A DNA stretch of 64,000 nucleotides. It comes from Tetraselmis striata. Taxonomy: Eukaryota; Chlorophyta; Chlorodendrophyceae; Chlorodendrales; Chlorodendraceae. Made by a program: the position numbers and the translations under genes. Of this stretch, positions 1 through 50,474 are shown one piece after another; within the stretch, counting starts at the first letter, position 1; the number at the start of each line of letters is the position of its first letter. The stretch is from the NCBI GenBank assembly GCA_006384855.1, contig VCJN01000285.1, positions 434,001 through 498,000 on the forward strand, written 5' to 3'. A model generated the notes under the pieces. It made no database searches, was not told the origin of the DNA, and saw only the letters and a program-made list of their open reading frames with translations.

Positions 1-46
1 AGGCAACTTCGCGTGCCGATGTCCGATCTGCCTGGTGCGCTGGCAG

Positions 47-3000
47 GTGCACGGCGTGGACAGCCGCCTGCCTGACTACGAGCAATTTGGCTACCACTCC
101 ACGCACTGGGCGGACTTTGTCGACTGGGCAGGTGGGCAGTCCCCCAACAAGTACACAGCGCATGATGAGTCGGCCAACGTGGACCCCTACGACAACAAGT
201 TGCTATTTGTCGGACGGCAATACGACCTCGGGCTCAACCATTCATCCGTCAACGGCGCGCTGCCCCTCTGCACCAACAATGACGCCCAGTGGGGGCCCTG
301 GGACATGGACGAGTCGCACTGCCCCTCTGCGGGCGCGCTCTGCGGCCCAAGTCGGACGGTGCTTGGGCCGCCCTGGGTGCCCGACCCTGGCACTCCAAGG
401 CCAAAGCCAGTGGTGCGCCCGCTGCTCCCCCTGTTGCTAGGCTATCCCACCGGGAGCACCGGCGGACACTGCTCTCTCCCGGCCGGGGCTAGCTGACACG
501 CGCGGTGTGCCGTGCACCGCAGCTCAAGGCGACGCGCGCCTGCATTGCCACTGACTGCGTGTGCGAGGAAGAGTTCGACTACGGCGTGGTGCAGTGCACG
601 CCCCCTATGGGCGAGGCGTACCAGTTTCTGCAGGGATGCGGCCTCCCAGCGGCGGTCATTCAGAGCCCCCAGGATGTGGAGTGAGCCCCTGCTCCCGGAT
701 CCTGTCTGGTGGTACACAAAACTGAGTCCTTTAGAGAAAGCACCGCGTTGCCGCTGCTGCCAATAGCCCACACAATGCTGCCCGCGGCGGCATTCCATCT
801 GAGTACCGGCGCAACGGGGCGGTTTCTATGATTCATTCGAACATGCATTGGGGATGAGATTTTGTGGAGGAGTATATCAGGTTGTGGCAGGGCGGTGCTG
901 CGGGCGGGGCCCAGGCGCGTTGGGACAGGCGGTGGGGTATTGGATTTCGGATTATTTCGCAACAAATAGGTTTAGTGCCCGGCTTGACCGCGCCCCGCTG
1001 GAGCGGGTGCCATCAATACCATATGGCCATCATGTGATACACTGTGGTAGCGCTGGCCCCAACAAGCTCGAGTCATCTTTATGTCGGCGTCGACAAGGGG
1101 GTGTTGGGTAGTCTTCTCCGCCCCGGCTGTCGTTCCCTGTGTGTCTCAGTGCTGTTGCTTTGAATCAGTGAGGATCCACCATCACGCCGGAGCCGCACGT
1201 CAGTCCGCCTCTAACGGTTTCTGTGCGGTTGTTTCCCGCCTGCGCCTGCAGCTGGCTGCAGAACAAGTGGCTGCGCTTCACGCCGCAGGACCCCATGGGC
1301 GAGTTCTACGACGTCTGCCAGATTGTCAACCGCCGGAGACCCATTGCATGGGGCGACAGGGAGATGGAGACTCTTGTCACGCAACCCTGGACCCACAACT
1401 TGAACTCTGCTGGCATTGAGGCTTCGGTGAGCGTCCCCTCACGGCTATCTATTCGTGTCATGCGGTGTGGCTGGTATAACAAGCGAGGCGGCATTATTCG
1501 TCCCAAAAGCACAAAGCTTGCCGCAGCACGGCCGCGCAGCATTATTAATGTACCCGGTAGTTCACATATGTAATACTCGTCGATGTATGAGGTATAATAT
1601 CATCGTAGTTATTGTATACTCGTATACATAGTACTCGTACTCGTACTCTAACCCGCCGACTAACCAGGATATTAGGATAAAAGTGCGGCATTTGTTTTAT
1701 TTGAAAATAATAGAAAAGACTAAAATATAGCACGTCGTGCTAATTTGGCTTTTCTTGAAAGAAAACTGACAGATGAATCTCAGTCGTATTGCGAATCGAT
1801 CTCGAACAGCACTACGGACATTCTTCGATTGGGTATTGCCCATTGTCCCGGAAAATGTTACAGGCATTGTTTTAAATACATAGCAATACAGGAATGCGAA
1901 CCGATGCACGGCAATGAGATTGCGTGAAGGACTACGCCTTGTATCGTGTCGTCGTCTATGATCTAAACGTGCTGGATTTCCTTCTGGATTTCTGTATGGA
2001 TTTCGTGAATGTTGCGTCTAGCACACGTAAGCAATCTAAACGTGTTTATGGGGTTTCCTAACAAAAAACCTACATGTTGAATCTGCCGGTGTGGCTGGCG
2101 CGAACAGGCCCCGGTAGCGGTACCGCCAGTATAATACTACAGGTAAATTACTCTGTTAATAAGCAACGGGTACCAGGAAAATTTCCGGTATCTTACGGTA
2201 TCGTAATAACGTAGAAGGGTGGCAAATTTAAATGTACGGCTGTGCACCGCCGATTCAAACTATCTGCCACCTACGCGCCGTACTTGTAATGGTCACACTG
2301 GTGCTGTGACTACGCCGCGGCGGTTGACGGCGCGCTGGGAGCTGCTCCGCTGCTTCCGATCATGTGCAGTGAAGCTTTTGTGTGGTCGCAGGGCAAGGTG
2401 TCCCTCAACGGCCGCTTCCACTTCTGGAGCAAGGTGCACGGCCGGATGATGCAGTATGATGTCGTTTATTTCTACGCCAACGGCCACATCGGCTTTGAGC
2501 CTCCGTCCCGCGGCACCACATTTCTGCCGGCGGTGCGCCCCGGCCTGGGGCACCCACCCCACTGCCTGTTCACACCTCGGCATGCTGGACTGCCAGCATG
2601 ACCCGGCCCGCTGACGGAATCGTGGGACGCTGTGGCACAGAGCGACGCGTACAGCGTGGAGGCGCACTTTTCTGAGGAGAAAGGCGCCGGCATCAGCGCG
2701 CTCTTCCATCCCATGCTCTTCTCCAGCTGCAACACGACGGGCGCGGAGGACTGCGGCGAGCTGCTGATCTCTCACGACCACGTTTTCAAGTCAGCCCCCC
2801 CCCCCCCCCCCCCCCCCCCGGCCTCTTTCCCTCTTTGCGAGTCAGTGCCTTTAGCCCTATTACCCTGATTAGCCCGCCACCGGGCATGGCACCCGATAGA
2901 GCCAGCCGACGGGGGCCATCGTGACAAAACCTCCGTGCCGACCAAGCCTCAGTAGGACTGCCTGTCGCGGGTATGAAAGAGAGCCCCATCAGCAGGGCTA

Positions 3001-3838
3001 GCTGGGGCGCAACAGTATCGTATAATTTCCAATAGTTTCCAATAATTTCCACTAGCCCATGGACAGTCCCCCACCCACGCCATGCGCAGTGCTTCCACTG
3101 AAGTGCCGGCGCAATGAGCTCCACACGGACCTGCTGACCCATCATGTGCAGTACTCCACGCTTTTGAGCGCAAGATGTCACGGGCGCTGCGCAGACCAGC
3201 GACCCCAGCCGGCAATGCGGGGCATCCGCTGGTATGATATCCTACACAACTAGGTCAGAAGCTCCAATCCCACAGCGCGCACACTGAGGATTGTGGGCGC
3301 CTGGCCGCTGCCCCGCAGGCGCTTTGTGCTAACATACCGCAACGTCATCTCCGCCTTCGCGCCGTCGGACCTGCCACAGTACCGCTCCACCTTTCAGGTG
3401 CGCCCGCCTACCCGCCCTGCTGCACCCGCCGCAGGGCGCTGAGCTTCTGCGCCCGCCGCGCGCGCTGCCCAAATACGCGGCGCAATGTGCCATCGTCGCG
3501 ATGTGCCACGGTCTTCAGATTTATGTACACGGTGCTCTTTGCTCCATCCTGCCCACCTGTGTGGCGTTTATTACCTGCGGCGGCGCTGACATCGCGGTGC
3601 GGGCGGGCAGGTTGTGCTGTGGCTGGAGGGCAGCGGCATGCCCGCTGGCACCTTCGACCTCATCTACTACAAGGTGTCCCAGCTGACGCAGGGCAACGCG
3701 GTGTACGGCTTCGCCAACGGGGAGCCCTACAGCCCGGCTTACGCTATTTCCCCGCGGAAGGCGGGCGCCGGGCAGACCTGCAACCAAGTGTTCCGGCCTC
3801 CTCAGCCTCGCTCTCCTACCCCTGCCACAGTGTTTTAG
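47..3838 (+). CDS. Gene A, 3' part: paralogue of the NIDO-like tail of gene B (7 exons, 5' end outside window)
   Basis: Seven exons were read at 47-376, 523-680, 1252-1426, 2392-2532, 2641-2789, 3319-3397 and 3611-3838 (stop TAG). All junctions are GT-AG, phases agree and the sum is 420 codons. Each exon has a counterpart in gene B on the other strand at about 60-80% identity, and junction positions match exactly. Exon 1 opens with VHGVDSRLPDYEQFGYHSTH. Exon 2 is Cys-rich (CIATDCVCEEEFDYG). Exons 4-7 give FYANGHIGFEPPSRG, GISALFHPMLF, RFVLTYRNVISAFAP and TFQVVLWLEG. That order resembles NIDO-like extracellular beta-sandwich domains (a known-family inference). By comparison with gene B, the upstream part lost off the window should be a subtilase and a membrane anchor. 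The intron at 2790-3318 has a 25-C tract. The last exon's C-terminal 20 residues differ from gene B, so the exact end is less sure. Confidence 0.72.
1972..2033 (+). mobile_element. 62-bp 5'-truncated LINE family B fragment with 11-bp target duplication
   Basis: The 62 bp are flanked by perfect 11-bp repeats ATCTAAACGTG at 1961-1971 and 2034-2044. The insert (ctggatttccttctggattt at its start, tctagcacacgtaagca at its end) matches the 3' end of the copies at 50119-50474 (+) and 39695-40670 (-). It lies in an intron of gene A. Confidence 0.75.
2795..2819 (+). repeat. Poly(C)25 in gene A intron
   Basis: A 25-nt C run begins six bases after the apparent donor at 2790. It matches the habit of gene B introns, which carry C runs on their own sense strand. 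Confidence 0.9.
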
Positions 3839-6360: not shown

Positions 6361-7109
6361 GAATATGGCTGCTGCTGTGGAATTGCTGGGCACAATTCCT
6401 GCGTAAATAGGGCTACTCTCATGGCCTGAGCTATCGTTCCATCGTCGTGCAACCGCGACAAGTAGCCTCGCGCGGTCTACTTAGCATGCGAACCAGTGCA
6501 CTGCATTGTTGTAGGCTATGCTGCCACCCCGCCCTTCTTGATGGTGGGACCGATCGACTGACCGTCTTTATTGAGATGTTCACGGGTAGGGAGAAGGATC
6601 TATTTTGCCGTTTTGCCACTTAGCCCATGCATGGCCACCGACGAGTCACGACCGCGTAATTGTCGGGCCTACGCTTAGGTAGCTCGCAGCTAGCAGCTAG
6701 CAGCGATCTATGCGTTGATGTATCATTTGATGTCGGCTGTAACGGATGAGAGCAAGGATATTAGAGCGGATGGAGGATTAGGCGGCCGCACCAAGGCACA
6801 TACAGTCATCAACGGGCGGTAATGCTACTGAGCTGTGGCGCACTCACAATAATATTGTGACAATTACTCGAGTACGTTAGAATACGAATTGATACCAGTT
6901 CTATGTTTACGAGTACTAGTATTGGTACATGGACCATATCAAAAATGCTGCCATGTGGCAAGAGTCATTCTTTCGCGACAAATGTCCCCTCGATTGTTAC
7001 AATATGAAGTAAATTGACAGTTGAATCAGCGATGCGTCGATTTTTCAGAAAATTTTAAAAGAACGGGTTCTATATCACTGGCCTACAGTTCCATGAAGTG
7101 CATTGCCGG
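6361..7109. other. Intergenic, nothing recognised
   Basis: No coding similarity between reading frames, no large repeat. Short low-complexity pieces (agctcgcagctagcagctagcagcg near 6680) only. Confidence 0.4.
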
Positions 7110-7405
7110 CGCTTTGAAGTACCAGCGGCGAGCGTTTGCATTGCCAGCGCTTTGAAGTACCCGAGTTTTTTTCCATTACCAACAGCGAGTAGCGAGTACC
7201 AGTACCAGTACCAGTACTTTTCTAATTCTGGGGAACTGCCCTTTTTGTAATTCACACCAGTACCAGTACGAGCAGTACCAGCAGTACCAGCAGCGAGTAG
7301 CGAGTACCAGTACCAGCAGCGAGCGTTCGCATTGCCAGCGCTTTGAAGTACCAGAGTTTGTTTTCCCATTACCAGCAGCGAGTAGCGAGTACCAGTACTC
7401 ATAGC
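7110..7405. repeat. ACCAGT / GCAGCGAGTAGCGAGT microsatellite-minisatellite block
   Basis: A composite array of taccag hexamers and longer words: gcattgccagcgctttgaagtacc at 7139 and 7329, and cagcgagtagcgagtaccag at 7186, 7290 and 7375. It is interrupted by a 38-bp LINE A tail at 7218-7255. Confidence 0.85.
7218..7255 (+). mobile_element. 38-bp LINE family A tail inserted in the ACCAGT array
   Basis: The 38 bp starting ttttctaattctggggaact are identical to the 3' terminal 38 bp of the LINE copy ending at 45190. They are flanked by accagtaccagtac at 7204-7217 and 7256-7269, though the repeat context makes the exact duplication length ambiguous. This is an extreme 5' truncation. Confidence 0.8.
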
Positions 7406-11371: not shown

Positions 11372-13134
11372 TTACCGCGCTCCGGTGGCCCGGCAGGTCT
11401 GCGCGGCGCTCTGCCGCGGGGAAATGACGTACGCTGGGTTGTAGGGCTCCCCATTGGCAACGCCGTACACCGCATTGCCCTGCGCCAGCTGGGACACCTT
11501 GTAGTAGATGAGGTCGAAGGTGCCGGCGGGGTGCGCGCTCCCCTCCAGCCACAGCACAATCTGTCCGCGCGCGACAGCAGGCGCACCGCAACGTCAGCTC
11601 CGCCGCACAGCAGAGCGTTATGATGTGGCAGGTCAAAGGCGGAGGCGTTGCTGAAAGACCGGAGAGGATGGCACTGAAACCGGCTGTTGTAAGCACAGTG
11701 GTGTCGTGAGTATCCAAACCTCCGTTTAATATGTTTACCAACTTATCATTATTATTATCACCTCATTATATATTTACCGCATTATTAACATTATCATTAT
11801 TATGATATGTCTACCACCTTGCAGGTGTATAGCTACGGGAGCATGTGCATTGGGTGGTGGCTAAATGGAGAGGCATTCCGGCGGGTACGTGGTATAGCTC
11901 GTCAGTGCGAGGTGGGAACGGTGGTGCGGGGCAGGGGCGGGGGCAGGCGCGCCTGGAAGGTGGAGCGGTACTCCGGCTGGTCAAAGGGCGCAAAGGCGGA
12001 GATGACGTTGAGGTAGGACAGCACAAAGCGCCTGCGGGGTGCACGAGGAGTCATCAGCACCGCCCACAATCACGCACTGAACTTTATTGGCGGTGTCTAC
12101 CAGGGCGGCTGCCGGCAGACCTGTTCGTGCCGTAGCTAGCGCCTCCCGCTGCAAAGAGTAGAACCTTAATGAGGACCAAACACTGCACCTCTTGCCCCAT
12201 GCAACGACTAGAATATAGTACCGTAGAATTGAACAGTTCCCGGCCACCAATTTGTTTTTTACACCTTCGCGTCGGAGTCATTGCCGTGCTGTATTCTGAC
12301 GTTTTCCTCCGTTACAACACATCTCCCTTTTCGCGAAGGGGGGGGGGGGGGGCGTTTTTTTTCCGCAGACCGTTTGTGTTTGTACTACGGTAGTCAAATG
12401 GCATACACTTGCCCGACGCACCCCGGCCTGTAAGGCAATGGGGGAGATACACCGGACGAGCTGCTGTGGACTTTGATGATATTCCTATATGTATTGGGGG
12501 GGCGGAACGCTCATTGCGCAGTTGGAGCGGCAGTGTGTGTCGGGGGTGAACGTTTATACGAGCGATCAGCGTGCGAGACGAGACGAGACGACCCGTACAT
12601 TATTGTAGCCGAGCATCGCGGCACTCGCACGCCGCCGCGCTCATTCATATCCACAGCATAACAACAACGACACATACCGCCACCCTCCGAGGGGGTGGAC
12701 ACAACAGCAGCAATGGCACGCTTTGGCGGGCGCTCACTTTGTCTTGTGATCATGGTAGATGCGCAGCTCGCCGCAGTCCTCCGCGCCAGTGTGCCGGCAG
12801 CCGGAGAAGCTCATGGGGTGGAAGAGCGCGCTGATGCCGGCGCCCTTCTCCGCGGAAAAGTGAGCCTCCAGGCTATAGGCATCGCTCTGCGCGGCACCGG
12901 TCGGATTGTCAGCGACCTCACTCGCAGGGGCTGAGGACGAGCGGGGAGGCGGTGGGAGCGGCAGGTGTGTGGGACTGGGGCCGTGGGGCGCACCGCCGGC
13001 AGGAAGGCGGTGCCGCCCGAGGGAGGCACAAAGCCGATGTGCCCGTTGGCGTAGAAGAACACGGCGTCGTACGGCATCATCCGGCCCAGCCGCTGGCTCC
13101 AAAAGTGGAAGCGTCCGTTGAGGGACGCCTTGCC
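11372..13134 (-). other. NIDO-like beta-sandwich region of gene B
   Basis: Four exons give GKASLNGRFHFWSQ, FFYANGHIGFVPPSGG, GAGISALFHPMSF, RFVLSYLNVISAFAP, TFQIVLWLEG and GNAVYGVANGEPYNP. The order (F..YD..f.YaNG.I.F, then ISALF, then RFV..Y.NV, then TFQ.vL...G) matches the pattern I know from NIDO-type extracellular domains and related bacterial sandwiches. This is a pattern-level match only. The CAG|GCGCGC junction at 11952 is a GC donor, whereas gene A has CAG|GTGCGC at the same place. Confidence 0.55.
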
Positions 13135-16100
13135 CTGCGGGTCAGAGGCGATCATCAAACACACGTCACGCGTCCACCTCTCCTGCTCCGACGACGCCTG
13201 CGGGAGCCCTACTGCTATGATAAGAACCTTTCTTGTCATTAGACTCAAGTTGGGCTTGCACACAACCTACTACAATAAGAGCATTTCATATGTTCTGCAA
13301 TAGTTTCGTCCACATCTGACCTCTGGACTTAAGCAGGTTCTTACTCGCAGAGTTCTGATCCCTTCGCCGTCCCCCGTGGAAGTTCATGTGCAGAGGCGGC
13401 CCAAGTGGTACGGTCATTAATTGCGCCGATAGTCAATGCACCGAATAATCATTACGACATTTATTACAGTAAACGTTTATAATACACATTGCCACAAGAG
13501 GGTGAGTCCAGACTGTTTAATATGTTGTTGGTCCACATCTACCGGGTATGGCAGATGTGTGTGCGAGTTGCTGCTATGCATCAGTGCTGGCATCCGTTTG
13601 TCAGCAGCCGTGCATCGCTCCCCTGGCACGGCGTGGCTTAGCTTCTCGGGGGGGGGGGGGGGGGGGGGATGGTACGGGCGCTCACTGCGCCGCGGACGTT
13701 GGAGCTGAACATGTGCGTCGCGCTCTGCACGTTGTCCAGGATCTGGCAGCTTGACGCGATGGGGCGCGGCTCGTTGTGTACCTGGCAGACGTCGTAGAAC
13801 TCGCCGGTGGAGTCCTGCGGCGTGAAGCGCAGCCATTTATCCTGCAGCCAACTGAAAGGCACAATTGCGCGAGGGTCAGTCGTCCGGCACTACAGCACTG
13901 TTACGGGGTCACCCTAGTATAGTATGGTAAGTATAGTATATTGTAATATGTTATAGCAAGCGCAGTTGGTACAGTAAATTTAGTGTGTAAAGATAGTGTA
14001 TTAAGCTTTCAGGTTGCTTGACAGTAGCATGCCTAACCCTGTTGGCTGATAGCTAGATGAGATACGAAGTTGCTGGATGCCGGATATACTTCTCCGCGCG
14101 GTCTTCTGCTCCAATGCCATTGCACAGGCGAGCGACACCAATGGATGGTTTTGCCGCTCGGATAAGATATTATGAAGACAAACAAAGCATATTTTAAAAA
14201 GTGCACAGAAAAAAACGCACTTTTTGCTTTCCAAAATCAATTCATGATACCGTATAAAACATAGCTATCAGATTTCTTTCAAGAAAATAGCAAAGTATCA
14301 AAACATTTAATACTCTATTTCTATTCTAGTTGCCGAGCTTGTATCCTAATAAACTGGTTAGACCCGCCCATCCCTCTCCCCTGCCGCGTCGGCAGCACAT
14401 GCCATACAGTCGCTAGAAATCCGCCTAATCCCCCTCTCTCCCGCAACGCACATCAGCACGCCGGGCTTGCTTCCCGTCACGACAGGCGGCGCAATGGTCA
14501 TTATTTCGGACACTCCTCCAGAGTGACCCAACCCCGGCATTGGCATGGAAAGTAGCAATCCCGCAAAGCTAGGAGGCTTTTTGTCGAATGGGTTCCCCTC
14601 ACATGGGGATGAGCTGGGTGAGGTGAGGGGGGAGCGAGAGGGGAGGGGGGGGGGGGGGGGGGGGGGGGGCTTACTCCACGTGCTGGCGCGTGCGGAGGAC
14701 GGCCGCGGACAGGCCGCACCCCTGCAGAAACTCGTACTCTTCGCCAGCGGGCGCCTTGCACAGCAGCACGCCGTAGTCGTATTCCTCCGTGCACACGCAT
14801 GTGGTGGCATTGCAGGCGCGCGTGCGCTTGAGCTGCGGGGCGGGGCGCGCAGCCGGTGTCAGCCTCCCCTCGCGCAGGACAGATGGCAAGCTTTGCTTTG
14901 TGCTAGGGGCTGGGGTTGGACGACATTCCAAAGATGTTGGCGGACGTACCGCATTAAGGTTTGCCGAACTGGGGTATGACTTAAGACACCTTTTAAGCAT
15001 GCTGCCTTGACTAACTACTAAAGCCTCTATGTCATCGTCGCAATACACGTATGAATTCTCAGCAACGGACGGGAAACTCGGGGGATAATGCCTTTGACAC
15101 TGCAGCCGACAATGCCGTCGTGTCAACGGCAAAGCGCGTGTGGTGGTTTCCTTTTTAACAGCGGACACCAAAAATACTGCACCTAGTTTTGAGCATCCGA
15201 CATGTCTTGCGAGCCAGGAATGAGCGCATCGACGTGTCTCAGGGTTGAGCAAGAATAAGTAGTCGTCAGATCTGAAGTTAAGCCCCCAGCCGGAGGTGGA
15301 CGGACGGAACGGGACGTTCCCTGAAGACAGGACAGGGACGGTAGACATGTGTCGTAATTTTGGTGCATGTTGGTCCCCGCACAGACACCCCTGCGCCTCA
15401 ACCCAATGGGAGGGACAAGCACGGGAATTGGCCATGCACAGCAAGAACCGCATGCCTGCGGAAGGGTTTTGGGGCGCACCACGGGGCTCGGCAGCACAGT
15501 GCCGGGCGCATCCACCCATGGCGGGTGAAGCACCGTCTCGCTGGACCCGCAGAGCGCCGCCGCCCTGGGGCAGTGCGACGCGTCCAGGTCCCAGGCCCCC
15601 CACTGGGTGTCGTCGTCGGGGCGGCAGAGGGGCAGCGTGCCGTTGGTGGACGACAGGTCCAGTCCGAGGTCGTTGTGCCCGATGAAGAGCAGCTTGTTGT
15701 CGTAGGGGTCCACGTTGGCCGACTCGTCATTCGCATTGTACCCGTCATGCTGGTCCTCCGCCCAGTCGACAAAGTCCGCCCAGTGCGTCGAGTGGTAGCC
15801 AAACTGCTTGTAGTCCGCCAGGCGGCTGTCCACGCCGTGCACCTGCCCGCGCCAGGGAGAGCGAATGAGTGCTTTTTGGCGGACCACCGAAACGGAAATA
15901 CCGTGCCTTTCGCGTGGTGTATCATAATGCATGTCGAGATAAAGTTGTTGGTTCAAATAATGAAAGAGTTCAGGATTTTTGTCTCGTCATTATGCAAGGT
16001 GTGACAATATCGATGTCGATAAACGCTACAGTACGTGGACGATGTTAGGACAGGTACAAATAACATATGTTTTAACACGCTGCCGTTCTGCATTTAAGGC

Positions 16101-19100
16101 CCATGTCGCCTCGATTTTTACAGAGGTCATAAACAATAACGACATACGGAACCCAAGGCAGGTTTATTGCTGTATGTGTTTGCATACATGCTGATATTCA
16201 CCTGTGTGCAATGGATGTATGCGGGCATAGTAATAGTGGGGCGAGGTGACTGGTCGGGGTAGGTCCGAGGGGGACGATATTTGCGGGCGCCGTTACCATG
16301 CCGGAGGACGCCAGGTTGGTGATGAAGCGCGCCGCAGACCTGGGCGTCGCCTGCGGGTGCGCCTGTGCCGGCCAAAAGGAAAGGGAACGAGCACACAGTC
16401 ACCGCATGGCAGTCTTGCCGCCATCCCCTGCATCAGACCCGACACGCAGCAGCAACTCGGCAGCATGGCTTGCCGCAGGGCGGTCGAGGGTTTCCATCCC
16501 GGGTCGGAGCGTAGGCCGTGGCAATATGCGTGCGTCGTGCGCGGCTGGGCGCACCTGCAGGAAGAGAGCCACCGCGCCGGTGACGAAGGGCGCCGCCTGA
16601 CTGGTGCCGCTCATGTACAGAAAGCCGTTGTTCGAGAGGTGGGAGGCGGAGCGGATGCCGTTGCCTGGCGCGTAGATCTGTACGCAGGCGCCCCAGTTGG
16701 AATAGATCGACTGCGCACAGGCGGCGGGCGGGAGGGACAACCCGGGGGGGGGGGGGGGGGGGCATCAGAGCAGCGAGTTTCGATCACAAGACAGCGCGGC
16801 CTCGAGCGCTGCCTCCAGTCTTGCGCAGCCGGTCACGTGAGCAATGACCATATCGGACGCATCATCATCATCATAGCCCGTGTGGGTGCGGCCAGATCAG
16901 ATTGTGGGCGCGTAGGCTTTGGCGCCCTGGGACCTCTTTTTAAAAAATGAGATACTAATGCATTGTTCTAAACCCGAGCAAGCACCCCAGTTTTGTCGGA
17001 TGAGGACCGGGCCATGCGGGTTTGCATGAAGTCTAAATTAACGAACGGGACATCTCGGACATATGGGACATCTGTGCTGACCCAGCAGTCATGCGGCGCT
17101 GCGACACGGGTGAGCGAATCGTCTCCAAGTATCGAGTCCAAATAGCATTCATAGGATACAATCCATATATCCTACACAAGACAAGACACGGCTCCGACAC
17201 TTCGTCGCAATCGAGTGCGGAAAACGAATCCGCCAAACCGCACGCATTCGCACCAAATAAGCAGTTGCTCAGGCGAGCCTTGTACCACGCAGGACTTGGA
17301 CCGCCCCGTCCCGGGCCTCCCAACACGCACGCGCTCGACGCCGCCGCCGCTCACCTTGCTGTCGTCCATGCTGGTGGCGCCCACGGTGATGGCGTTGATC
17401 TGCGTGGCCGGCGAGTGCTGGCACGCGTCGTCGTCGTTGTTGCCCGCGGCAGCCACGACGACGACGCCCGCCTTGTGTAGCTCGTTCACAGCGTTCTCCC
17501 AGATCTCGCTCTTGCGGCTGACGACGGACAGGTTGACGACTGCGCGCGGGGCCGGTCGGCCTGCTTCGGCTTCGCTAGCCTTGAGCTGCGCTCAGCCACC
17601 GATAACAACGCCGCCGCACAGCTTGCCGCATCAGGACCGCGTCAACCGGCATCAGCACTGTTGTAGTAACGCAAGCCTGGGAAATGTATCTCGTATCTCG
17701 TAGCTGCGGCCGTGTTCCTCCAAATGATATGCGAATTTCGATTTCATATCTTTGTGGAGTTTGCGCAAGATGGGAAATTTGAAATACTCGTACAGCATAG
17801 CGCACAACTACTCGGAGCTCGGTTTTGCGCGGGGTCTGTGCGTGCGTGCTGGTATCACAAAAATCTAGCTGTTCAGGTAAAGACCGGGCCGAAAGACACT
17901 GCAATATTGACCCGTCAATGGGTCATAAATGTTTTGTCCTTTTAAAATAAATTCGTCCCTTTCGCATTCCTATCCTGGCGGGCGGTATTAAACTACTCAT
18001 CTATTATTGTCACCGATTCATATACCTTACCACAAAAATAAATGCCCTCACTTCGCGATGACTGCTCCTCACCTGACCGCGTACTTGTTGCCTAATCATA
18101 TCTGTCCACGAGTACCAGCGTGCGGGCAGGGCGTAATACATTCCGGTATTGGGCGGAGTACACTAGCACAAAGGAATGATAGCAGTCATCGCCCGACTGC
18201 CGCCAGGCAACATGCAAGCCTCGCTAACACTGGACACCGGAAAGGGGGGGGGGGGGGGTTTGAGCGATGGGGCGCACCTCGTTGTAGTGGCGGAGCACCC
18301 ACTGCAGGCCGTTGAAGGCGCTGGACCCGTGCACTGACGTGACAAACTTGTTGTTGCGGTTGAGCACCTTCACGGCGTGGATGATGCAGCCCGGCGCGAC
18401 GCCCACCGTCCTGCCTGTGGAGCGGGGTGTGGCGGTGCGCGGTCTCATTGCGCGACCACCAGACAGACTATCCCCGTCCAAGAGAGCCACCCTAGCCACG
18501 GCGCGATGCCGGCCGTGCGTGGGGCATGATTGGTTGCCCAAGCAGGAGGGGGTTACCCACCTGCCACGATGGCAGCCACATGCGTGCCATGGCCCTGGTC
18601 GTCCGCGGCATTGGATGAGTGGTCGATGGCGTTGAAGGACCTGCCGCTCCTGCGGGTGCAGGGAGTAGGGGTCAAAGGGGAAACACTCTGAATATGCTGC
18701 ACATTTCTTGGGGGCGGGCGCCTAACTACAACCATGTAAACTATGCCACACCACAGTGTATTTGCATATTGGCACGCTGCTCCCTGTCATATGATGGGCG
18801 CAGAAATACAGTCTGGGATTCGTATACTACTGTGGCCTGATACATGAAAATATATTCTGTGTGGCTGGGCATTGTCTGTTGTGCATATATTTGATCGCGC
18901 ATAATCCCACATTGCGAAGTGGAAACGCTAGTCTGGAGCTGTATGTGCGGGAGTTTGGCCGCCGGCGTCCGTAAGTGGGATAAGGGGGGCGCTCCACCTG
19001 CCGCGGAACTCCGTGTGGTCAAGGTTCACCCCGGTGTCCACGATGTAGCAGTGCACGCCGCGGCCCTTGAGCGCCTGGTTGTCATCCGCGGGGTTGTAGC

Positions 19101-22100
19101 TCTCGTTGTAGGCGCCTAGCTCGCGGCTGCGGGGCCGCATCAACACGTTGCGGGGTCATGTCAGCGCGGGCCGTCACAGTTGCACGGTCATAACGGAGTG
19201 ACAGGCCTAACCGCTACCCCACTTTTGCTCTGCTACATGGTCGTGTTTCTGACCCCCTTCGAGCAGGAAAACCTTCATGTATATGGACATCTACTAGAAC
19301 GGTGTCGGTGCCGTTGCGGATATAAAGACACTGCGAATAAGGACATGCACTACCTGCAAGAGGTCAAATGTACGCGCAACACTATAGCGAAATTAAAGCA
19401 AATTTCTGATAAGTTGCATGCAAGCTGAACTATAAGAGGCTTATTATCAGGGTTTGTATTGTTGCGTCGGCCCCGTACATATACCGCGAATATCATCATA
19501 TCACGGAATCTCAGATTTGCTGATGCAAAACAAATCGTATCTTTTGTCATTTGGGATTCACAGAAAATAATTACGATGGTATGGGCATGGGAGTTACACA
19601 TAAAAGCGGGGGGGGGGGGGGGGGGGGGGCATGAACAGTCTCGCGTGCCTGTTGCGGATGCGGTCCAGGCCCCACGGTCCATCGTCGTACTCGAGCTGCG
19701 GGAGATTGTGGCCAATGTCCTCCTGCAGCACCTGCATACAGTGCCGCACGTTGCAGCGCTCCAGGCGGCGGCCTGCCTGCGTCTCAATCATGCAGTGCGG
19801 CTCCTCCTTGCCCGGCACGTGGCGGCACGACGAGCACGCCTGGTTCACGCGGAAGCGGTTGGCGGGCGGGGCCATGCATTCCTCCGGCAGGTAGGAAACG
19901 TTGTACTGCTGGATCTCTTCCGGCGCCCAGGGCTTGCACCACCCATAGAGCTCCATGCCGTTGCTGTTGGTGTATGTCACGGTGCTCTCGTTGCCTCTGC
20001 AGCGAGCAAGACACCAGCAGGTCGTGAGGGGAATATGGCATCCTGGCAGCACTAAGATCGCCCAACCACCAGGTGGTCTGCGCTGTCGCCGTGGCGCTGC
20101 CTGGCATCCACGGAGCAAAGTGCGGTATGCACGGCGCCGCTTGACACTTGGGGATCGGCTGACAACTCGCGCAGACGGTACGCGTAATAATGATAGCAAA
20201 CTTTTATCTTGAATCAACACCTGCTGCAGTGCAAATAGCTCGGTTTTGACCCGTACCATTTGATTGAGTTCACGGGTTCAAAAAGCAAGAATCTATTTTG
20301 CATGATTGGGCTGGAAATTGCGTGCTATATTTCCAGATACATTTCCAGATTTGCATTGTGTTCTCTCTTTGCAAAGGTGTTATAAACAATAATAGCAAGT
20401 AGCAAGACAAAAGCAGGTAGGGTACGGGTAGAGTTGGCTGAGAGCTCACCGGTACATGCGCCCGCTGAAGTAGCAGGACGTGGAGCCGTGGATCATGTTG
20501 TCCAGGTACCAGTCCAAGCCGCCCGCGGCCTCCTGCTTGAGCGCGCGTCCCTCACGGGGCGCCACCGCCCGCCGGGCGCCCAGGCGCGCCGCGTGCAGCT
20601 CCTCCAGGGCGGCCCGCCGCCTCAGGGCGGCGCTCAGCATGCGCCCCTTGTGCGTGGAGAAGACGGCCTCCCGCAGCTGCGCGGCCGCGGCGGCGTACGG
20701 GTGAGCGCACCACCGCCGACCGCCGCGGCTCATTGCTGAAGTTTCCTTATCTATATACTTTTTAGGAGCTATGCACAGGACGGGGGCCGGTGCGCCGGTA
20801 AGAACCTTGATTATTACAAGCCTGCAATTGGGCGTGACGGCAACCTTTCATAATATTTGCTATAGTTCCGCTATGGTTTCGTCTAGTTGTTAAGACAGGG
20901 CTGGTTTGTGTTTGCATTGTTCGTAGAACCGCCTGGGCACCCGTTGCTATGGCTACACCTTGGCAAGCACTGCGCCTGCTGCAAATGTGACTACGACATC
21001 ACTGCATTCGCACTTAATTGCGACTTGTGATTTTAAAGTAAAACTTCTGGAAGCGGAACTGCTTAATATTTAATGAATTGAAACGTTTTCGACACCAACA
21101 CGGTCATAGCGAGGAAGCCGCGGCTGAGCAGCCGTCGTGGCTATTATTTCATGGGGATGGTAATGCCTTGTGGCAAGCCACGCTCAGCTGTGGCGACAGG
21201 CCCTGGACGGGGCTGCCACGGGGAGGGCGGTGTGGTTGGGAGCGGGGCCGTACCTGCCGGCGCCGGGTGGCATGCCCCTCCACATGAGCCTCCTGCCCCT
21301 CGTCCCCAGTGTGCAGGCCCCACCGATTGACGGAGGGGCCGCTGCCTGCAAATATCTTTGAGATCTGGGCGATGCCTGCGCAGCCGGCAGGGTGAGGCGG
21401 AGTTGGCATGCCACCAGGGAAAGGGTGGGGAGCGCTTTGTTGCACAGAACACATTGCACTGTATTATGGTGGCTGCTATCAGCACCGTATACATATGTTA
21501 ACAAACACACTGCGGAAGTTGTTATCTTATGCTGTGGGTAATTGTGTGAGTCCCGGGCCAAACAATTGACACACCACAAACTCGGAAAGCAATATGGTAG
21601 GCGTCGTTTCTTGAGGGCAATCCTCACCGTATTTGTTGTTGGATAGCAGCATGTCTTGGTCCCCGAGCATGTCATTCAGGTCGTCCTCGCGGATGGTGAT
21701 CTGGAACTGGTTGAAGGCGACTGCTTCCTAACAGCCGTGGCAGCACAAGCGAAGTTGGGGGGGGGGGGGGGGGGGGGGGGATGTCAGCTCCACCGCGCAG
21801 CCAGTGCGTATTACGTCAGCGCGAACAGTGCCATGTGCGAGCGCAATAATATATATACATACACACACACACGCACACACACATATATGGACCATTATGT
21901 GTAAATGCACGTAGCTGCATGTGTGTTGTTCTGTGGCTGCCACACCAAGTTGGAGTCTAATTGAGCCGTCTGCTTGAGCCCACAGGTAACATTACGACAT
22001 CTGTAGGCGAGCAGACGGGGCTGTTGCGCGCCGGAACGGGGCCCCGCACCTCCCGGCTGCAGACGGTTGTCGTCTCATTCACGCGGCAGGCGCACATGCC

Positions 22101-24305
22101 GTTGTACCGCACCACCAAGACGCCGCAAAACTCCAGGTAGCGGTCATCGTTGAACGTGGCGTCGGCGGTTGCGTGGTTGAGCAGCACCATCCAGGCCGTG
22201 GGCTCGCTGCGCACGAGGCTGCTCTTCGGGTCCGCTTTGCTGCACAACCCGGCCACCATGGGGAGGGAGGGAGGGCGGCCACGGGCTCAACGTTGTTGGT
22301 TGCTTGCATAGCATCAAGCGCGCAAGGACCGGGCAATGTCATGAACACAAGAGTACCGCCACATTGATACGTCGTGCTGGTACGAGTCGGCCATACATTT
22401 CGTCGCTGGTGTCCTCCACGGGCAGCCGCAGCAGCGCCGCCGCCGCCGCCGCGCCCGCCTGCTTGGCGTCCACCTCACGGAAGGCCTCCACCGTGTTGGC
22501 TGTGCCGCTGGCGGGCTCCTCCGTCAGCTTGTATGCGCGCGTGTTGGTGAATTGCTCCAGCGAGCCGCCGTAAGGCTTGAGCTCATCCTTGGAGCTGTAG
22601 ACCTGCAGAGGGGGGACAGGGCGAGGGGGAGGGGGGGGTGGCATCAGGCACTCGGCAGATGGCAAGAAGGCTCTTGTGAGAAATACGAACTTCTTTGCTC
22701 AGTGCATGTACGGCATTGAGCAAAGCACATCTGCCAACGCACCTACAGTGGCATGCATACATGTCATGCCAGTGCGGCGTGAGAGGTTATCTCTCAACAT
22801 TTTACATGTGCATGGCCCCTCGGGACGGCCTTACCGTGATCATATCCACCACCATCTTTCCGATCTCGTCGTCCTCGGCCGCGCTCAGGGAGGCACCGGG
22901 GTTGCGCTCCCAGCTGTTGAAGCTGAACTCCGGTAGCGCCTCCACCCGCAGCTTCACGGCGTAGCCCAGTTGCACACTGCCCAGCCGCGCCCAGGTGTCC
23001 TCAATCTACCAGGGTTCCCCAACCAGAGAAGGCGCCAGGTGGGGGGAAGGGGGGGGAGGGGGAAATATGGCACGCGCGTCAGGGGCAGAGGCAGTGCACA
23101 ATGAACGTCTCAGGGTGGTGAGTGACCCTCCCTGGACAACATCACAACATCAGGCAGGCCGGTCCGCCGGTAAGTCGACGGCGCCCACCCTCATGAAGTC
23201 CACCGGGAAGGTGACGTTGTGCTCCTTCCGGGTCGACCGGTCAGACAGCACCACCGTCATCATCTCAGGCTTCATTGCCAGCAGGTCAGGCTGCCCAATA
23301 CTCGTGCCATGCCGGCCTCGTATCTTGTTGTAGCAGTCTGCATCCGCAACAAACTGAAGCGCAAGGGGAACCACGTGAGATGCGACCATGACCCCCCCTA
23401 CACCCCTTCCATCTTCCTCAACCCCCGCCCATTCAACCTCAACATGTTGCGGTATTTTGCATGCTTGCCCCTAAACTTGGTTTACCCCCCCCCCCCCCCC
23501 CCCTCCATTGAAGAGAGCATAACTGCATATATCAGAATATAACACGAATATAAAACGAAACTTCCGATAAGATGGCGCAACACAATGTACTATTTTTGTG
23601 ACCCACGACCCCGGTTAAACGGCACAGGTGTGCCGACGCGCCCTGCTCGTACCAGGAATGCGTCGGTAACCTTGCCGGTGGCAACGACGTTGTTGGTCTC
23701 CTTGTTCCTCATAACGCCATCATTGGCGAGCTTGTAGTCCTGTTGGACGCGCAGGCAGCAGGCGTCTCAGCAGGATGGCAAAGGGCGGTGAGACAGGAGG
23801 GGTATCGAGGGCCGTGGATTGCCGCCACCACACCAACCTGCGTCAGGTTGGTGACGGCCACCGTGAGGCCGGCGTTGAGCCCCAGCGCGCACAGAATGAG
23901 GATAACCAGGCCCACCACTGTGCGTCCTGCCATCTTGAGCTTCCTCTGCGCGTTCTTGTACATCGCGCACGCCTGCATGCAGAGCCACAGAGTCATCCGA
24001 CAGTCATCAGGAATGCAGTCCGGCTAGCTTACCCGCAGGTGATTGCAGTGCCCCCTCGGGACTCGGCACTAATGTCATCTATCCCATGCAGCACCTGATT
24101 GCATTTGCTGGTGGGCTGCATGGGCTATTGCTGTGCACTATTGGCACTATCCATCAGACTGGAGAAGCAGCTGCGTGCCATCGATGTTGCATGTGTATGT
24201 GTGTGTGGGCGTGGGGGGGGGGGGGGGGGGGGGGGGGGGGCGGAGTTGGAGGTACATGGCCACCGCCATCGCGGTATAACCGCGCAACGGGTGAGGAACG
24301 ACCGG

Positions 24306-24340
<35 letters not shown>

Positions 24341-24874
24341 GGGTTGGTGGAGGTCCGTCCCGCCAGCACGCACCCGCGCAACCTCGTCCGCGCTGACCGT
24401 GCCGTCGCCGTCCTGGTCGAATATCTTGAGGTCCTCTCGGATGGCCTCCGGGAAAGAACTCAGGTCGTACTTCATGTCGCGACGGTCCATGTGCGCCACG
24501 GCGGCGATTAGCTCCTCGACGTCGATATGCCCGTCGCCGTTGGCGTCCAGCGCCTCCAGCTTCTGGCGGATGGCCACCGGAAGCTGCTCAAGGTTGATGC
24601 CCTGCAGCGCGGGGTGCGCGCTCGCCAGCGTCTTGAAGCGCGCCACAGCACCCAGTGGCCGCGTCGGCCACTTACTAGCGCCGCCCGCGGGCGACACCGT
24701 CAGCTCCACGCCCGCCTCCCCGCCGTTGCCCATCGTTGCGCGCGGCGCCTTGCCGTCTCGAGGCAGCGACAGCGAGCGCAGGCTGCTGCCGGACGACATC
24801 GCGGACGAGGCGGGCGACTGCCGCAGAGCCGCCACCGCCCGGTTGGCGAGCAGCGCCGCGCCACCGTCTTCCAT
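11372..24874 (-). CDS. Gene B: EF-hand / transmembrane / subtilisin-like protease / NIDO-like protein (about 24 exons)
   Basis: Exons, 5' to 3': 24874-24374, 23972-23838, 23739-23653, 23353-23189, 23005-22835, 22602-22397, 22239-22050, 21727-21628, 21345-21254, 20676-20450, 19996-19649, 19126-18998, 18649-18561, 18414-18278, 17585-17355, 16710-16555, 16350-16297, 15842-15516, 14832-14675, 13851-13686, 13134-12994, 12886-12738, 12031-11953 and 11560-11372 (stop TAA). Phases agree at every junction, giving about 1,408 residues. Domains in order: paired EF-hands (residues ~108-165), one hydrophobic span (~185-207), an unassigned extracellular region, Cys-rich pro-region, S8 subtilase with D, H, N and S present, and the tail shared with gene B's inverted partner, gene A. 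A type II membrane topology with a cytosolic calcium sensor and outside protease is inferred. The ATG at 24874 is the first in-frame ATG; an upstream exon could be joined at the acceptor near 24940. Two donors appear to be GC. Splitting into two genes is possible but the unbroken phase argues against it. Confidence 0.7.
16297..19996 (-). other. Proteinase K-like subtilase (S8) domain of gene B with its Cys-rich pro-region
   Basis: Seven exons (19996-19649, 19126-18998, 18649-18561, 18414-18278, 17585-17355, 16710-16555, 16350-16297) give the full catalytic core. Seen in order: a Cys-rich lead-in ending in GPWGLDRI (the conserved start of mature proteinase K-like enzymes), YIVDTGVNLDHTEFRGR (catalytic Asp), DDQGHGTHVAAIVAG (His), AVVNLSVVSR, VVVVAAAGNNDDD (oxyanion Asn), SNWGACVQIYAPG and MSGTSQAAPFVTGAVA (Ser). 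All four key residues are present, so an active endopeptidase is expected. The junction after GLDRI appears to use a GC donor (CAG|GCACGC), which keeps phase. Confidence 0.85.
23838..23972 (-). other. Transmembrane exon of gene B
   Basis: This 45-codon exon holds a basic stretch (KNAQRKLKMAGR) followed by a hydrophobic run (TVVGLVILILCALGLNAGL) and then TVAVTNLTQ. Positive charge before the span favours a cytosolic N-terminus. I recall algal EF-hand proteins with the same order of EF-hands, one span and a GLTVAV.. stretch, but I cannot cite a family here. Confidence 0.8.
24213..24339 (+). repeat. Two long poly(G) runs (poly(C) on the gene B sense strand)
   Basis: Runs of about 28 and 29 G lie in the gene B intron 23973-24373. 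Similar runs sit in gene B introns near 12339, 13651, 14646, 16743, 18246, 19608 and 21757. Confidence 0.85.
24374..24660 (-). other. EF-hand pair of gene B
   Basis: Two calcium-binding loops are visible: LDANGDGHIDVEEL near 24511-24552 and FDQDGDGTVSADEV near 24380-24421. Both have Asp at loop positions 1, 3 or 5, the central Gly, and Glu/Asp-Glu at the end, so both should bind calcium. The helices between them (IAAVAHMDRRDMKYDLSSFP) suit a paired EF-hand lobe. The pair lies upstream of the membrane span, so on the cytosolic side if the protein is type II. The Ser/Arg-rich 100 residues before it look disordered. Confidence 0.85.
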
Positions 24875-27825: not shown

Positions 27826-30173
27826 ATGCCGGCAAAGGGATGGATAGCGAGTGTGTCGAAGGATGGCGTGTACTCATGCAAGCACTGCCGGGGCAACGTG
27901 ACGGGCACTTGTGAGAAGATGGCGCGAGAGCGGCACTTCCTAAAATTCCCGAACTGTAGCCACTCGTTGAAGCGTGCGGCTAAGTTGCGCCGCAAGGCCG
28001 CCTTATCACAAGCAGCAGCAGCAGGGGCGGCAGCAGCAGCAGCAACAACAACAGGGGCGGCAGCAGGAGTAGCTGCAGCCGTCGGAAACGGCCCGCCGGC
28101 GCCGGTCTCGGACGACGGCGGCTCGAAGGTGGACGATGTGATGGGCGTGGGGGAGGACCCCGTTGGCGAAGACGGTATGGACATCGACGCGCCTGCGTGG
28201 CCGCCGGCGGGCGTGGAACCCGCGATGAGGGCGTGATATGGAAAGGCGATTCCGGCGACTTCTACATGAAGGTCATCGCCAAGAAGTTCCGGGGAGTATG
28301 GCACTACGGCGAGATAACCGGCGTCGTTACCGAGTGGGTGTTGGAGGACTACGGCGGGGCGACCCAGTGGCGCGCTGTTTTCGAGGACGGGGGCATTGTG
28401 GGCCTTCTGCGTTCAGAGGTGAGTGGGCCCGGCCTGCGTGCTGGTGGCACCACTCAACTGCGGTTGTATGGAATCACACGCACCCGCCCGGTCGGCGTGG
28501 CAGGTTGTGGAGGCTATGACGGCTGCCCAGGAGCACCCCCCTGTGGATGCGGACGGGGAGGCTCGCTTGGTAACCGTCCATGAAGGCGATGACTTGTCCA
28601 GTGAATCACGCACCTTGCCCGGCGTGCGGTCAACACAACCCGGCTGGCGGAGGCCAAGCAGAACACTGGCTGCCATGGCGTGTGCCATGTGCATGTGGTC
28701 CGGGGCTATGTTAGCATGGTCAACCTCTTCCCCCTCGCGCCGTTCCACCTGTTTTTTTTTGGCTTGGGAAGGGACTTCTGGAGGAAATTTGTCACCGTGC
28801 AGGGCCACATTGGATTCCGAGCTATGAAGCAGGAAGACCGGCGCCAGGCTTTAGTCCCGATACCCAGCAACTTTGAACGCGGGTTGCGCCCTTCGTTTGC
28901 AGTGTCCAAGAATCGAAAGGTAAACCCCTCCCCCCCCCCCCCCCCCCGGGCGTGGGCGTGGGCGTGGGCGTGACGGCATTCCCCTCCATGACTGCAGGGT
29001 CAGGCAAGGTGACGGTGCAGCCCGGCTGGGTCATGGAGGACTGCTTGCACCACATGGAAACGTTTTCCATTCTTAACGCCGGTCCGCTCCTCGAGGAGGC
29101 CCGGGTGAAGGCGATCATGCCCGAGAAGGAGCTCGCGTCCCCAGCGGTGGTGCGTTCGGTGTCACGACTGGCGGTGCTTGGGCACATGTACAAGCGCCTG
29201 CAAGGAGCTGCGTGGTTCGTCACGCGGTGGGGTTTGCAGAATGTGGTGACGGAGGAGGACGGCCCCGAGCGCAAGGCGCAGGTGGACGCGCTCACTAGGG
29301 AGGGGAGGACTCGATACCCAGCGCGGCGCCAAGGCGCGGCGGCCGGGGCAGCGCGGCGCCAAGGCGCGGCGGCCGGGGCAGCGCGGCGCCAAGGCGCGGC
29401 GGCCGGGGCAGCGCGGCGCCAAGGCGCGGCGGCCGGGGCAGCGCGGCGCCAAGGCGCGGCGGCCGGGGCAGCGCGGCGCCAAGGCGCGGCGGCCGGGGCA
29501 GCGCGGCGCCAAGGCGCGGCGGCCGGGGCAGCGCGGCGCCAAGGCGCGGCGGCCGGGGCAGCGCGGCGCCAAGGCGCGGCGGCCGGGGCAGCGCGGCGCC
29601 AAGGCGCGGCGGCCGGGGCAGCGCGGCGCCAAGGCGCGGCGGCCGGGGCAGCGCGGCGCCAACGCGCGGCGGCCGGGGCAGCGCGGCGCCAAGGCGCGGC
29701 GGCCGGGGCAGCGCGGCGCCAACGCGCGGCGGCCGGGGCAGCGCGGCGCCAACGCGCGGCGGCCGGGGCAGCGCGGCGCCAACGCGCGGCGGCCGGGGCA
29801 GCGCGGCGCCAAGGCGCGGCGGCCGGGGCAGCGCGGCGCCAAGGCGCGGCGGCCGGGGCAGCGCGGCGCCAACGCGCGGCGGCCGGGGCAGCGCGGCGCC
29901 AACGCGCGGCGGCCGGGGCAGCGCGGCGCCAAGGCGCGGCGGCCGGGGCAGCGCGGCGCCAAGGCGCGGCGGCCGGGGCAGCGCGGCGCCAACGCGCGGC
30001 GGCCGGGGCAGCGCGGCGCCAACGCGCGGCGGCCGGGGCAGCGCGGCGCCAAGGCGCGGCGGCCGGGGCAGCGCGGCGCCAAGGCGCGGCGGCCGGGGCA
30101 GCGCGGCGCCAAGGCGCGGCGGCCGGGGCAGCGCGGCGCCAACGCGCGGCGGCCGGGGCAGCGCGGCGCCAAG
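27826..30173 (+). CDS. Transposon 1 gene: zinc-finger/Tudor-like protein with a repeat-encoded tail (spliced, model approximate)
   Basis: The start ATG at 27826 opens MPAKGWIASVSKDGVYSCKH, a C-x2-C then H/C cluster (CKHC..FLKFPNCSH) like the BED-type fingers of transposon proteins, followed by Lys/Arg- and Ala-rich sequence. A frame change near 28.2 kb leads to FYMKVIAKKFRGVWHYGEIT and QWRAVFEDGGIVGLLRSE, the alternating beta pattern of Tudor/agenet-like domains (F.G.w.GeI....W...FEDG). A clear donor follows at 28419 and an acceptor at 28503. Further coding pieces run to about 28919, then after a poly(C) intron from about 29006 (VTVQPGWVMEDCLHHMETF). The frame then enters the 30-bp minisatellite as ARRQGAAAGA decamers. 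Exact exons and whether the minisatellite is translated are unsure. Confidence 0.5.
29321..30173. repeat. 30-bp GC-rich minisatellite, 28 units plus a 13-bp partial
   Basis: The unit is gcgcggcgccaaggcgcggc followed by ggccggggca. Units differ only at one base (aaGgcg or aaCgcg). The order of that base is G x11, C, G, CCC, GG, CC, GG, CC, GGG, C, so the later units show a four-unit (120-bp) higher-order pattern. Because 30 is a multiple of three, several frames on both strands stay open; those ORFs are not evidence of coding. A 28/30-identical unit occurs three times, inverted, in CACTA element 2 (57951-58040). Confidence 0.95.
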
Positions 30174-32636: not shown

Positions 32637-32740
32637 ATTTACACTTGTGCACTCATTAAGTTTGGGCTGGTTTCGGAGCAGTACATGTACGTATGTATAT
32701 ACATACAATGGAACGTAGGACCTGCGCGGAAAGAGGCGGG

Positions 32741-50118: not shown

Positions 50119-50474
50119 TAACATAAACGGGACGCGACAGGGCTGGCGGCGGATTTGGCACTGGGTCTGTTGCACGCCCGTGGCGCCCCGTTCTGGGTTG
50201 GACCCCCCACTTCCGCTCCTTGCTGCGAGACCTCTAATTCGAAGCCCCTTTCCTGTCGGCGCCTTCACATCACATTCGGCCTAGTGCCGCTATTGGAGTG
50301 GCCCAGGATTGTGTGCTGGGGAGAGCGTCCCTACTGCGTGGAGCGGCGGCTGGCTGGTGGCGATGCCTGATCGGTGGCTGTCATGGCGGTTCCCGCCTCT
50401 TGTGGCCCCGTAGCTGGATTTTCATCTGGATTTCTGCTTGGATTTCTTGAATTTTGCAGCTAGCACATGTAATC
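50119..50474 (+). mobile_element. LINE family B copy, 356 bp
   Basis: Flanked by attttacatta (50108-50118 and 50475-50485). About 90% identical to the reverse of 39695-40020, ending gcagctagcacatgtaatc. The ctggatttt..ctggatttct triplet near the 3' end is shared with 1972-2033. Confidence 0.85.

What the first reader, a model, noticed from the sequence alone, without database searches (positions are those of the whole stretch)
11372..24874. A single 24-exon gene joins EF-hands, a membrane span, a complete subtilase and a NIDO-like tail
Seen: every splice junction I assigned keeps phase from the EF-hand exon to the stop, and the protease has D, H, N and S in place. Known: EF-hands sense calcium, S8 subtilases are secreted endopeptidases, and NIDO-type sandwiches occur in extracellular matrix proteins. 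Inferred: a type II membrane protein with a cytosolic calcium sensor and an external protease tethered to, or released with, an adhesive domain. I do not know a described protein with this order.
Basis: partly seen in the sequence, partly recalled or inferred. Interest (0 to 1): 0.82.

Follow-up and report, generated by a model that had tools for sequence, protein, structure and literature searches.

The report
Membrane-anchored algal protease with calcium sensor
A green alga carries a small family of genes for a cell-surface protease that has a calcium-sensing tail inside the cell and a protein-cutting enzyme with an adhesion-like end outside it, an arrangement I found no description of.

Summary
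Confirmed. On the minus strand of 24874-11372 lies one 24-exon gene (1,427 residues in my comparative model): an EF-hand pair, one membrane span, an ectodomain, a kringle-like Cys-rich segment, a complete proteinase-K-type subtilase and a NIDO-like tail. The decisive evidence is comparative. The same genome (224 Mb, a green alga by its rbcL) has four more genes with this order; one, B, lies beside it in convergent orientation, its 3' half inside this window. Intron positions and phases match the focal gene at 21, 17, 9 and 13 of 23 places in B, C, D and E, against about 0.5 by chance, including introns that join the membrane side to the protease; so the two-gene reading fails. All five genes keep the D, H, N and S positions and both EF loops. 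The family tail is homologous to NIDO-like domains of the same genome (hhalign 98.6%, E 1e-15), although no family member passes Pfam's cut-off. Type II subtilases are already known in Chlamydomonas (sporangin/VLE1 and others). The EF-hand cytosolic part and the kringle-like and NIDO-like modules are the new features. Calcium control of the protease is inference: a similar EF-loop and membrane cassette also sits on other ectodomains here.

The parts
11372..24874 (-). whole coding span, 24 exons, 1,427 residues in the comparative model
   Evidence: start Met uncertain (24874 or 24733)
24374..24874 (-). exon 1: N-terminal tail and EF-hand pair (loops about 24547-24512 and 24418-24383)
   Evidence: Pfam EF-hand_1 two stretches, E 3.9e-11; loop residues 1, 3, 5 and 12 kept in all five genes (read by eye)
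23838..23972 (-). exon 2: transmembrane span (about 23915-23847), basic residues on its N side
   Evidence: hydropathy 2.49 over 19 residues; dN/dS 0.05 against gene B for residues 168-241
20677..23739 (-). exons 3-9 and intron 9: ectodomain of unknown fold, ending in the basic stretch RRRQ
   Evidence: no Pfam hit above cut-off and no NCBIfam hit; aligned in order in genes B-E
19738..20490 (-). exons 10-11: kringle-like Cys-rich segment just before the protease
   Evidence: hhalign against own-genome kringles 59.8%, E 8.8e-5, control pairs about 1% or less; Pfam cut-off not met
15750..19680 (-). exons 11-18: subtilase; Asp 19038-19036, His 18591-18589, Asn 17441-17439, Ser 16602-16600
   Evidence: Pfam PF00082 E 1.1e-35; PDB best 8c4z E 6.4e-48 over residues 765-1026 of the 1,476-residue draft
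13686..15749 (-). exons 18-20: linker and Cys-rich region, only weakly TSP1-like
   Evidence: hhalign against own-genome TSP1 20%, E 0.0011
11372..13134 (-). exons 21-24: NIDO-like tail
   Evidence: family profile against own-genome NIDO-like domains, hhalign 98.6%, E 1e-15, 118 columns
47..3781 (+). 3' half (exons 18-24) of convergent paralogue B; the rest lies upstream of the window (L009); its stop codon was not determined

Best explanation
This is a type II (N-inside) membrane protein of a green alga, one of five related genes in its genome. Shown by sequence: two canonical EF-hand loops sit before a membrane span with basic residues on the N side, so they face the cytosol if the positive-inside rule holds. 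The outside part is an ectodomain, a kringle-like Cys-rich segment, a complete proteinase-K-type subtilase and a NIDO-like sandwich. Inferred: it is made as a membrane-held zymogen, is cut in the basic stretch between membrane and protease, and the protease leaves with its NIDO-like tail, or stays on the surface or on shed vesicles, to cut extracellular-matrix or cell-covering proteins, as sporangin/VLE1 does in Chlamydomonas. Inferred with less confidence: cytosolic calcium acting through the EF-hands controls where or when the protein is delivered or released, rather than catalysis itself.
For: Same order in five genes. Shared intron positions and phases: B 21, C 17, D 9 (its near-copy D2 10), E 13 of 23, random about 0.5. 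dN/dS of focal gene against B 0.40 overall, 0.05 in TM and stalk, 0.26 EF, 0.38 S8, 0.35 tail. D, H, N and S in all five genes (E's Ser). Strongest span with basic N flank in all five. NIDO-like homology. Precedent: 6 of 21 C. reinhardtii S8 proteins predicted type II, VLE1 presumed released by cleavage (PMC6313938); all four subtilisins identified in mating ectosomes are type II (PMC6919629, passages); proteinase-K homologues occur in green algae (PMC6713707, passages).
Against: No transcript, proteomic or localisation data. A similar EF-loop and TM cassette occurs on ectodomains without a subtilase match (C1901, C757 twice, C47), so it may have nothing specific to do with proteolysis. No Pfam prodomain was found. 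The kringle-like call is only suggestive. The N-terminal tail (dN/dS 0.68) and the Cys-rich region (0.64) are only loosely constrained. Second, weaker hydrophobic peaks were seen in A (1.52) and D (1.42), in the protease core, and in E (1.87), in its tail. The basic stretch RRRQ is kept in A, B and C but is weaker in D and E. VLE1's core is reported closest to PC7, unlike this one.
Confidence: 0.62

Rival explanations
1. The EF-hand and membrane cassette is a general type II anchor of this alga, used for delivery of many ectodomains; it has no specific coupling to the protease.
For: A similar EF-loop, TM and stalk pattern precedes other ectodomains in C1901, two genes on C757 and C47, the last with an LNR/Notch domain.
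Against: Those cassettes have a weaker EF part: the two C757 genes score below Pfam cut-offs, and C1901 and C47 have no EF-hand hit, whereas all five protease genes keep two canonical loops (read).
Confidence: 0.4
2. Two neighbouring genes (an EF-hand/TM protein and a secreted subtilase) were joined by the reader.
For: No cDNA was available; exon 11 evolves fast (pN/pS 0.89).
Against: The same order occurs in five genes. Intron 10, phase 2, joining the two halves, is shared by A-D, and intron 11, phase 2, by A, C, D and E, with B's within 2 residues. Gene C aligns exons 9 and 10 as one exon.
Confidence: 0.03
3. The protein sits the other way round (EF-hands outside or in the lumen), where they bind calcium structurally, as in some extracellular EF-hand proteins.
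For: Topology is a prediction from charge and hydropathy only.
Against: Basic residues flank the N side of the span in all five genes, no signal peptide was seen by eye (no predictor was run), and the subtilase would then be cytosolic although it carries conserved cysteines.
Confidence: 0.08
4. It is a pseudoprotease or a largely adhesive receptor; catalysis has been lost.
For: No activity data; the S8 domain and Cys-rich exons evolve faster than the TM and stalk.
Against: All four catalytic positions are kept in all five genes.
Confidence: 0.06

Closest known systems
Sporangin / vegetative lytic enzyme VLE1 and the other type II S8 proteins of Chlamydomonas reinhardtii (e.g. Cre17.g708400, TM 451-473, S8 767-1163)
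   Same: Type II membrane anchor before an S8 protease in a green alga; VLE1 digests the mother wall and rides on ciliary ectosomes (PMC6313938, section 13 read, section 16 and Table 1 as passages; PMC6919629, passages).
   Different: VLE1 has 36 residues before its span and a catalytic core reported closest to PC7; the focal core's best solved relatives are proteinase-K-like. The word EF-hand does not occur in the main text of PMC6313938. I could not compare sequences.
Proteinase K / aqualysin / PCSK9 kind of subtilase
   Same: Aligned over the whole catalytic domain, including the PWGLDRI entry and a matched Cys pair.
   Different: Those are soluble with no EF-hand or membrane anchor (recalled); the focal gene adds kringle-like and NIDO-like modules.
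NIDO (nidogen-like) domain, PF06119
   Same: NG-turn plus FQ-strand pattern; hhalign 98.6% against own-genome NIDO-like domains, one of which scores 40.3 bits.
   Different: Focal tail has no Pfam hit and the best family member, D, reaches 17.3 bits against a cut-off of 25; two invariant extra cysteines and insertions.

Membership tests
Peptidase family S8 (subtilase) | Asp/His/Ser triad with oxyanion Asn in the S8 fold | tested here: met
   Pfam PF00082 E 1.1e-35, 123.8 bits over cut-off 21.8; PDB alignments
Peptidase family S8 (subtilase) | proteolytic activity | not testable with these tools
   needs expression and assay
Proteinase-K-like S8A clade | closest relatives are proteinase K / aqualysin rather than kexin / furin | tested here: inconclusive
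   the best rows are proteinase-K-like enzymes and PCSK9 (whose full name contains kexin; that it is proteinase-K-type is recalled); no furin among the 60 rows shown of 277; no tree was built
EF-hand | 12-residue loop with ligands at 1, 3, 5 and 12 | tested here: met
   two loops, Pfam above cut-off; kept in five genes (read by eye)
EF-hand | calcium binding | not testable with these tools
   needs a binding assay
Type II algal S8 (sporangin/VLE kind) | no signal peptide, single N-terminal span, S8 outside | tested here: met
   hydropathy and charge only; no signal-peptide or topology predictor was available; weaker peaks inside the protease core of A and D and in the tail of E
Type II algal S8 (sporangin/VLE kind) | orthology to VLE1 / PC7-like core | not tested
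   no eukaryotic protein collection available
NIDO (PF06119) | passes the Pfam gathering score | tested here: not met
   focal tail no hit; best member 17.3 bits, cut-off 25
NIDO (PF06119) | homology to recognised NIDO domains by profile | tested here: met
   hhalign 98.6%, E 1e-15 against A6; 4 of 5 A6 members hit NIDO at E<=1, best 4.4e-10
Kringle (PF00051) | passes the Pfam gathering score | tested here: not met
   of five segments only E's hits, 12.8 bits, cut-off 34.3
TSP1 (PF00090) | profile homology | tested here: inconclusive
   hhalign 20%, E 0.0011; four genes aligned, D left out

The most novel reading that the evidence does not exclude
An inside-out calcium-gated ectoprotease: a cytosolic calcium signal read by the EF-hand pair drives clustering, delivery or shedding of a surface zymogen, so that the cell turns an intracellular Ca2+ signal directly into cutting of its own covering, with the NIDO-like tail keeping the freed protease on the matrix.
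Probability: 0.2. Interest if true: 0.75.

Novelty: new variant of a known kind. Interest (0 to 1): 0.52.

Why it matters
[quoted passage not shown] A family that carries its own predicted cytosolic calcium sensor gives a concrete, testable candidate link between calcium signals and matrix proteolysis. It also shows how a green alga has assembled kringle-like and NIDO-like modules, which I know best from animal matrix and blood proteins (recalled), around a protease.

Tried and rejected
Two-gene reading: rejected on shared introns and five-fold recurrence. A fragment alignment meant to feed a better prediction misaligned. Viral-contig scans with the tail and the N-terminal module matched 3 and 8 stretches by pattern, none confirmed as a relative. 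A profile search of PDB with the tail gave three hits at E 0.92-1.2; the single-sequence search with D's tail listed 12 rows, the best being designed repeat proteins 'Cake' over about 30 residues with no stretch passing on its own, which I take as spurious. A link between poly-C runs and splice donors was not clear (donor-like motif within 60 bases upstream of 12 of 129 runs, downstream of 7; the antisense motif 11 and 4). TSP1 reading of the region after the protease: weak, not claimed. Paper searches for the architecture. I saw listings only: 15 of 34 papers, 10 of 133, all of the 1 and 2, none held. No title or abstract start among them names a protein with this order; most subscription papers are not in that library.

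Full report
What is there. The feature lies on the minus strand. Reading exons downward from 24874, a chain of 24 exons reaches a stop at 11372 with compatible phases at every junction. Because I chose the junctions for compatibility, this alone proves little. After comparison with the neighbouring paralogue the model is 1,427 residues, with 21 GT-AG and 2 GC-AG introns. One of the two GC-AG introns (exon 23 to 24) is supported independently: gene B has a GT donor at the same place, and gene D has no intron there and reads straight through STFQIVL.

Domains. Pfam gives two EF-hands (EF-hand_1 E 3.9e-11) and Peptidase_S8 (E 1.1e-35) (on draft pieces). One strongly hydrophobic span, about residues 187-209 (peak 2.49), has basic residues on its N side; the strongest span of each of the five genes does. 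Weaker peaks occur in the protease core of A (1.52) and D (1.42) and in the tail of E (1.87). The best solved relatives of the protease are an extracellular serine proteinase (8c4z, E 6.4e-48), aqualysin, proteinase K and PCSK9, aligned over most or all of the catalytic domain (60 of 277 rows shown). Asp781, His814, Asn916 and Ser981 occupy the catalytic places. The ectodomain between membrane and protease has no Pfam hit above cut-off and no NCBIfam hit.

One gene, not two. The window is part of a 224 Mb assembly, contig C221 434001-498000. An S8 search of that genome returned 70 matches, and a search with the N-terminal half returned 25. I fetched places where both occurred and some with one only and compared the whole model with 14 stretches. 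B (C221 about 427.1-437.8 kb, plus strand, convergent with the focal gene), C (C221 about 329-320 kb, minus), D (C1713, with a near-identical copy D2 on C491) and E (C2518) each carry EF-hand, TM, S8 and tail in order; where tblastn missed a part (such as C's TM exon, D's ectodomain and E's NIDO part) the spliced alignment placed it. Of the other nine stretches, C1406 and C1901 gave only N-terminal matches, C203, C1850, C1035, C2445 and C803 only protease matches, and C2161 and C603 none. A later search suggests that C1406 is a second copy of E, cut by its contig end. The two introns that join the membrane half to the protease half are phase 2: intron 10 is shared by A-D and intron 11 by A, C, D and E, with B's within two residues. 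Gene C aligns exons 9 and 10 as one exon. A phase-2 intron at one place in several genes is not expected between two genes. Identity of aligned residues to the focal protein is 982/1405 (B), 525/1307 (C), 393/1225 (D) and 423/1286 (E); the last figures include forced stretches, and E's alignment lost the segment with the catalytic Ser, which is present in the DNA. dN/dS of focal gene against B is 0.40 overall, 0.68 in the N-terminal tail, 0.26 in the EF part, 0.05 in TM and stalk, 0.40 in the ectodomain, 0.64 in the Cys-rich region, 0.38 in S8, 0.45 after it and 0.35 in the tail. By exon, pN/pS is 0.07-0.61 in 23 of 24 exons and 0.89 in exon 11.

The tail is NIDO-like. The focal tail alone has no Pfam hit. 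Gene D's tail scores at best 17.3 bits to NIDO, below the cut-off of 25; 2 of 5 family members hit NIDO at E<=1. The same genome has other NIDO-like domains: four places at E 0.014-0.019 each, over the cut-off (27.4-38.8 bits) only together with their neighbours in the frame. Of five such domains aligned, 4 hit NIDO at E<=1, and the one listed individually scores 40.3 bits. Profile against profile, the family tail matches them at 98.6%, E 1e-15, over 118 columns; control pairs gave 0.1-1.0%. A structure prediction of D's tail failed (mean pLDDT 32.7), so the fold itself is not shown.

Just before the protease all five genes have a Cys-rich segment with twelve invariant columns, five of them Cys, one Trp, ending in HC. 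Against kringles of the same genome hhalign gives 59.8%, E 8.8e-5. Pfam's cut-off is not met: of five segments only E's hits, at 12.8 bits, cut-off 34.3. I call it kringle-like and suggestive. The stretch after the protease is only weakly TSP1-like (20%).

The EF-hand cassette is reused. A search with D's N-terminal module and reading of the loci showed a similar EF-loop, membrane and stalk pattern at the start of other genes: C1901 followed by Cys-rich repeats, two genes on C757, and one on C47 with an LNR/Notch domain. A further match on C426 was not followed. Their EF-hands score below Pfam cut-offs (C757) or not at all (C1901, C47). None of these contigs has a match in the S8 list. This weakens the idea that the sensor is specific to the protease. 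The tail, by contrast, was found only in family members in the two tail searches of this genome (21 and 5 matches); those searches also missed gene E, so distant copies elsewhere are not excluded.

Organism. The genome's rbcL encodes a green-type RuBisCO large subunit (that it is chlorophyte-like is my reading of the sequence from memory). I did not name the species.

How it most likely works. In Chlamydomonas, 6 of 21 S8 proteins are predicted type II; VLE1/sporangin is stored as a proenzyme, presumably freed from its span by cleavage, and digests the mother wall (PMC6313938, section 13 read whole, others as passages). All four subtilisin-type proteases identified in mating ectosomes are type II (PMC6919629, passages). 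Sporangin is inhibited by EDTA (PMC8643629, passages). Proteinase-K homologues occur in green algae (PMC6713707, passages). By analogy the focal protein is a surface-held zymogen whose protease acts on the cell covering or matrix, alone or after release with its NIDO-like tail. The cytosolic EF-hands would most likely tune delivery or release. The type II pattern and intact catalytic residues are shown by sequence; zymogen state, cleavage, substrate and calcium control are inferred.

Novelty. Seven searches of the paper library showed no title or abstract start naming a protein with this order; I saw only part of the longer lists, the library lacks most subscription journals, and no eukaryotic protein database was available, so unpublished annotations of the same order in other algae are quite possible. 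It is a new variant of a known kind, the algal type II subtilases.

Noticed in passing
window 47-3781 (+), continuing upstream in L009: The 3' half of paralogue B, convergent with the focal gene; its catalytic Ser (in L009) is in GSSQ rather than GTSQ. B lacks a Met where the focal gene has its first Met; a Met is shared at focal residue 48.
   Followed up: yes
window 11372-24874 and 1-3790: 10 of 11 runs of 12 or more G or C inside the focal gene and B's part are poly-C on the sense strand, although the window as a whole has 15 G and 16 C runs. A general link to splice donors was not clear.
   Followed up: partly
window 29319-30173 and 32725-34613: Tandem arrays: a 30-base unit in 28.5 copies (98% matches) and a 371-base unit in 5.1 copies (97%).
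   Followed up: no
window 50473-51177 (+): ORF with a sub-threshold zf-RVT match (19.7 bits, cut-off 27.5), possibly a retroelement remnant.
   Followed up: no
C553 about 46.8-49.7 kb and C832 about 93.9-96.9 kb of G000: Another S8 match is followed about 1.6 kb downstream by an array of TSP1 repeats, on two contigs: possibly a second kind of mosaic subtilase.
   Followed up: partly
G000 C1713/C491, C2518/C1406: Near-identical loci on two contigs (the D tails are 100% identical over 288 residues) suggest that both haplotypes are in the assembly; several other S8 matches also come in pairs of equal score.
   Followed up: no
L032 7934-9214 (-), L033 6990-7709 (-), L034 3118-3657 (+), L019 about 6745-7281 (-): Other genes starting with an EF-loop, membrane span and stalk cassette but with different ectodomains; L032 has an LNR/Notch domain.
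   Followed up: partly
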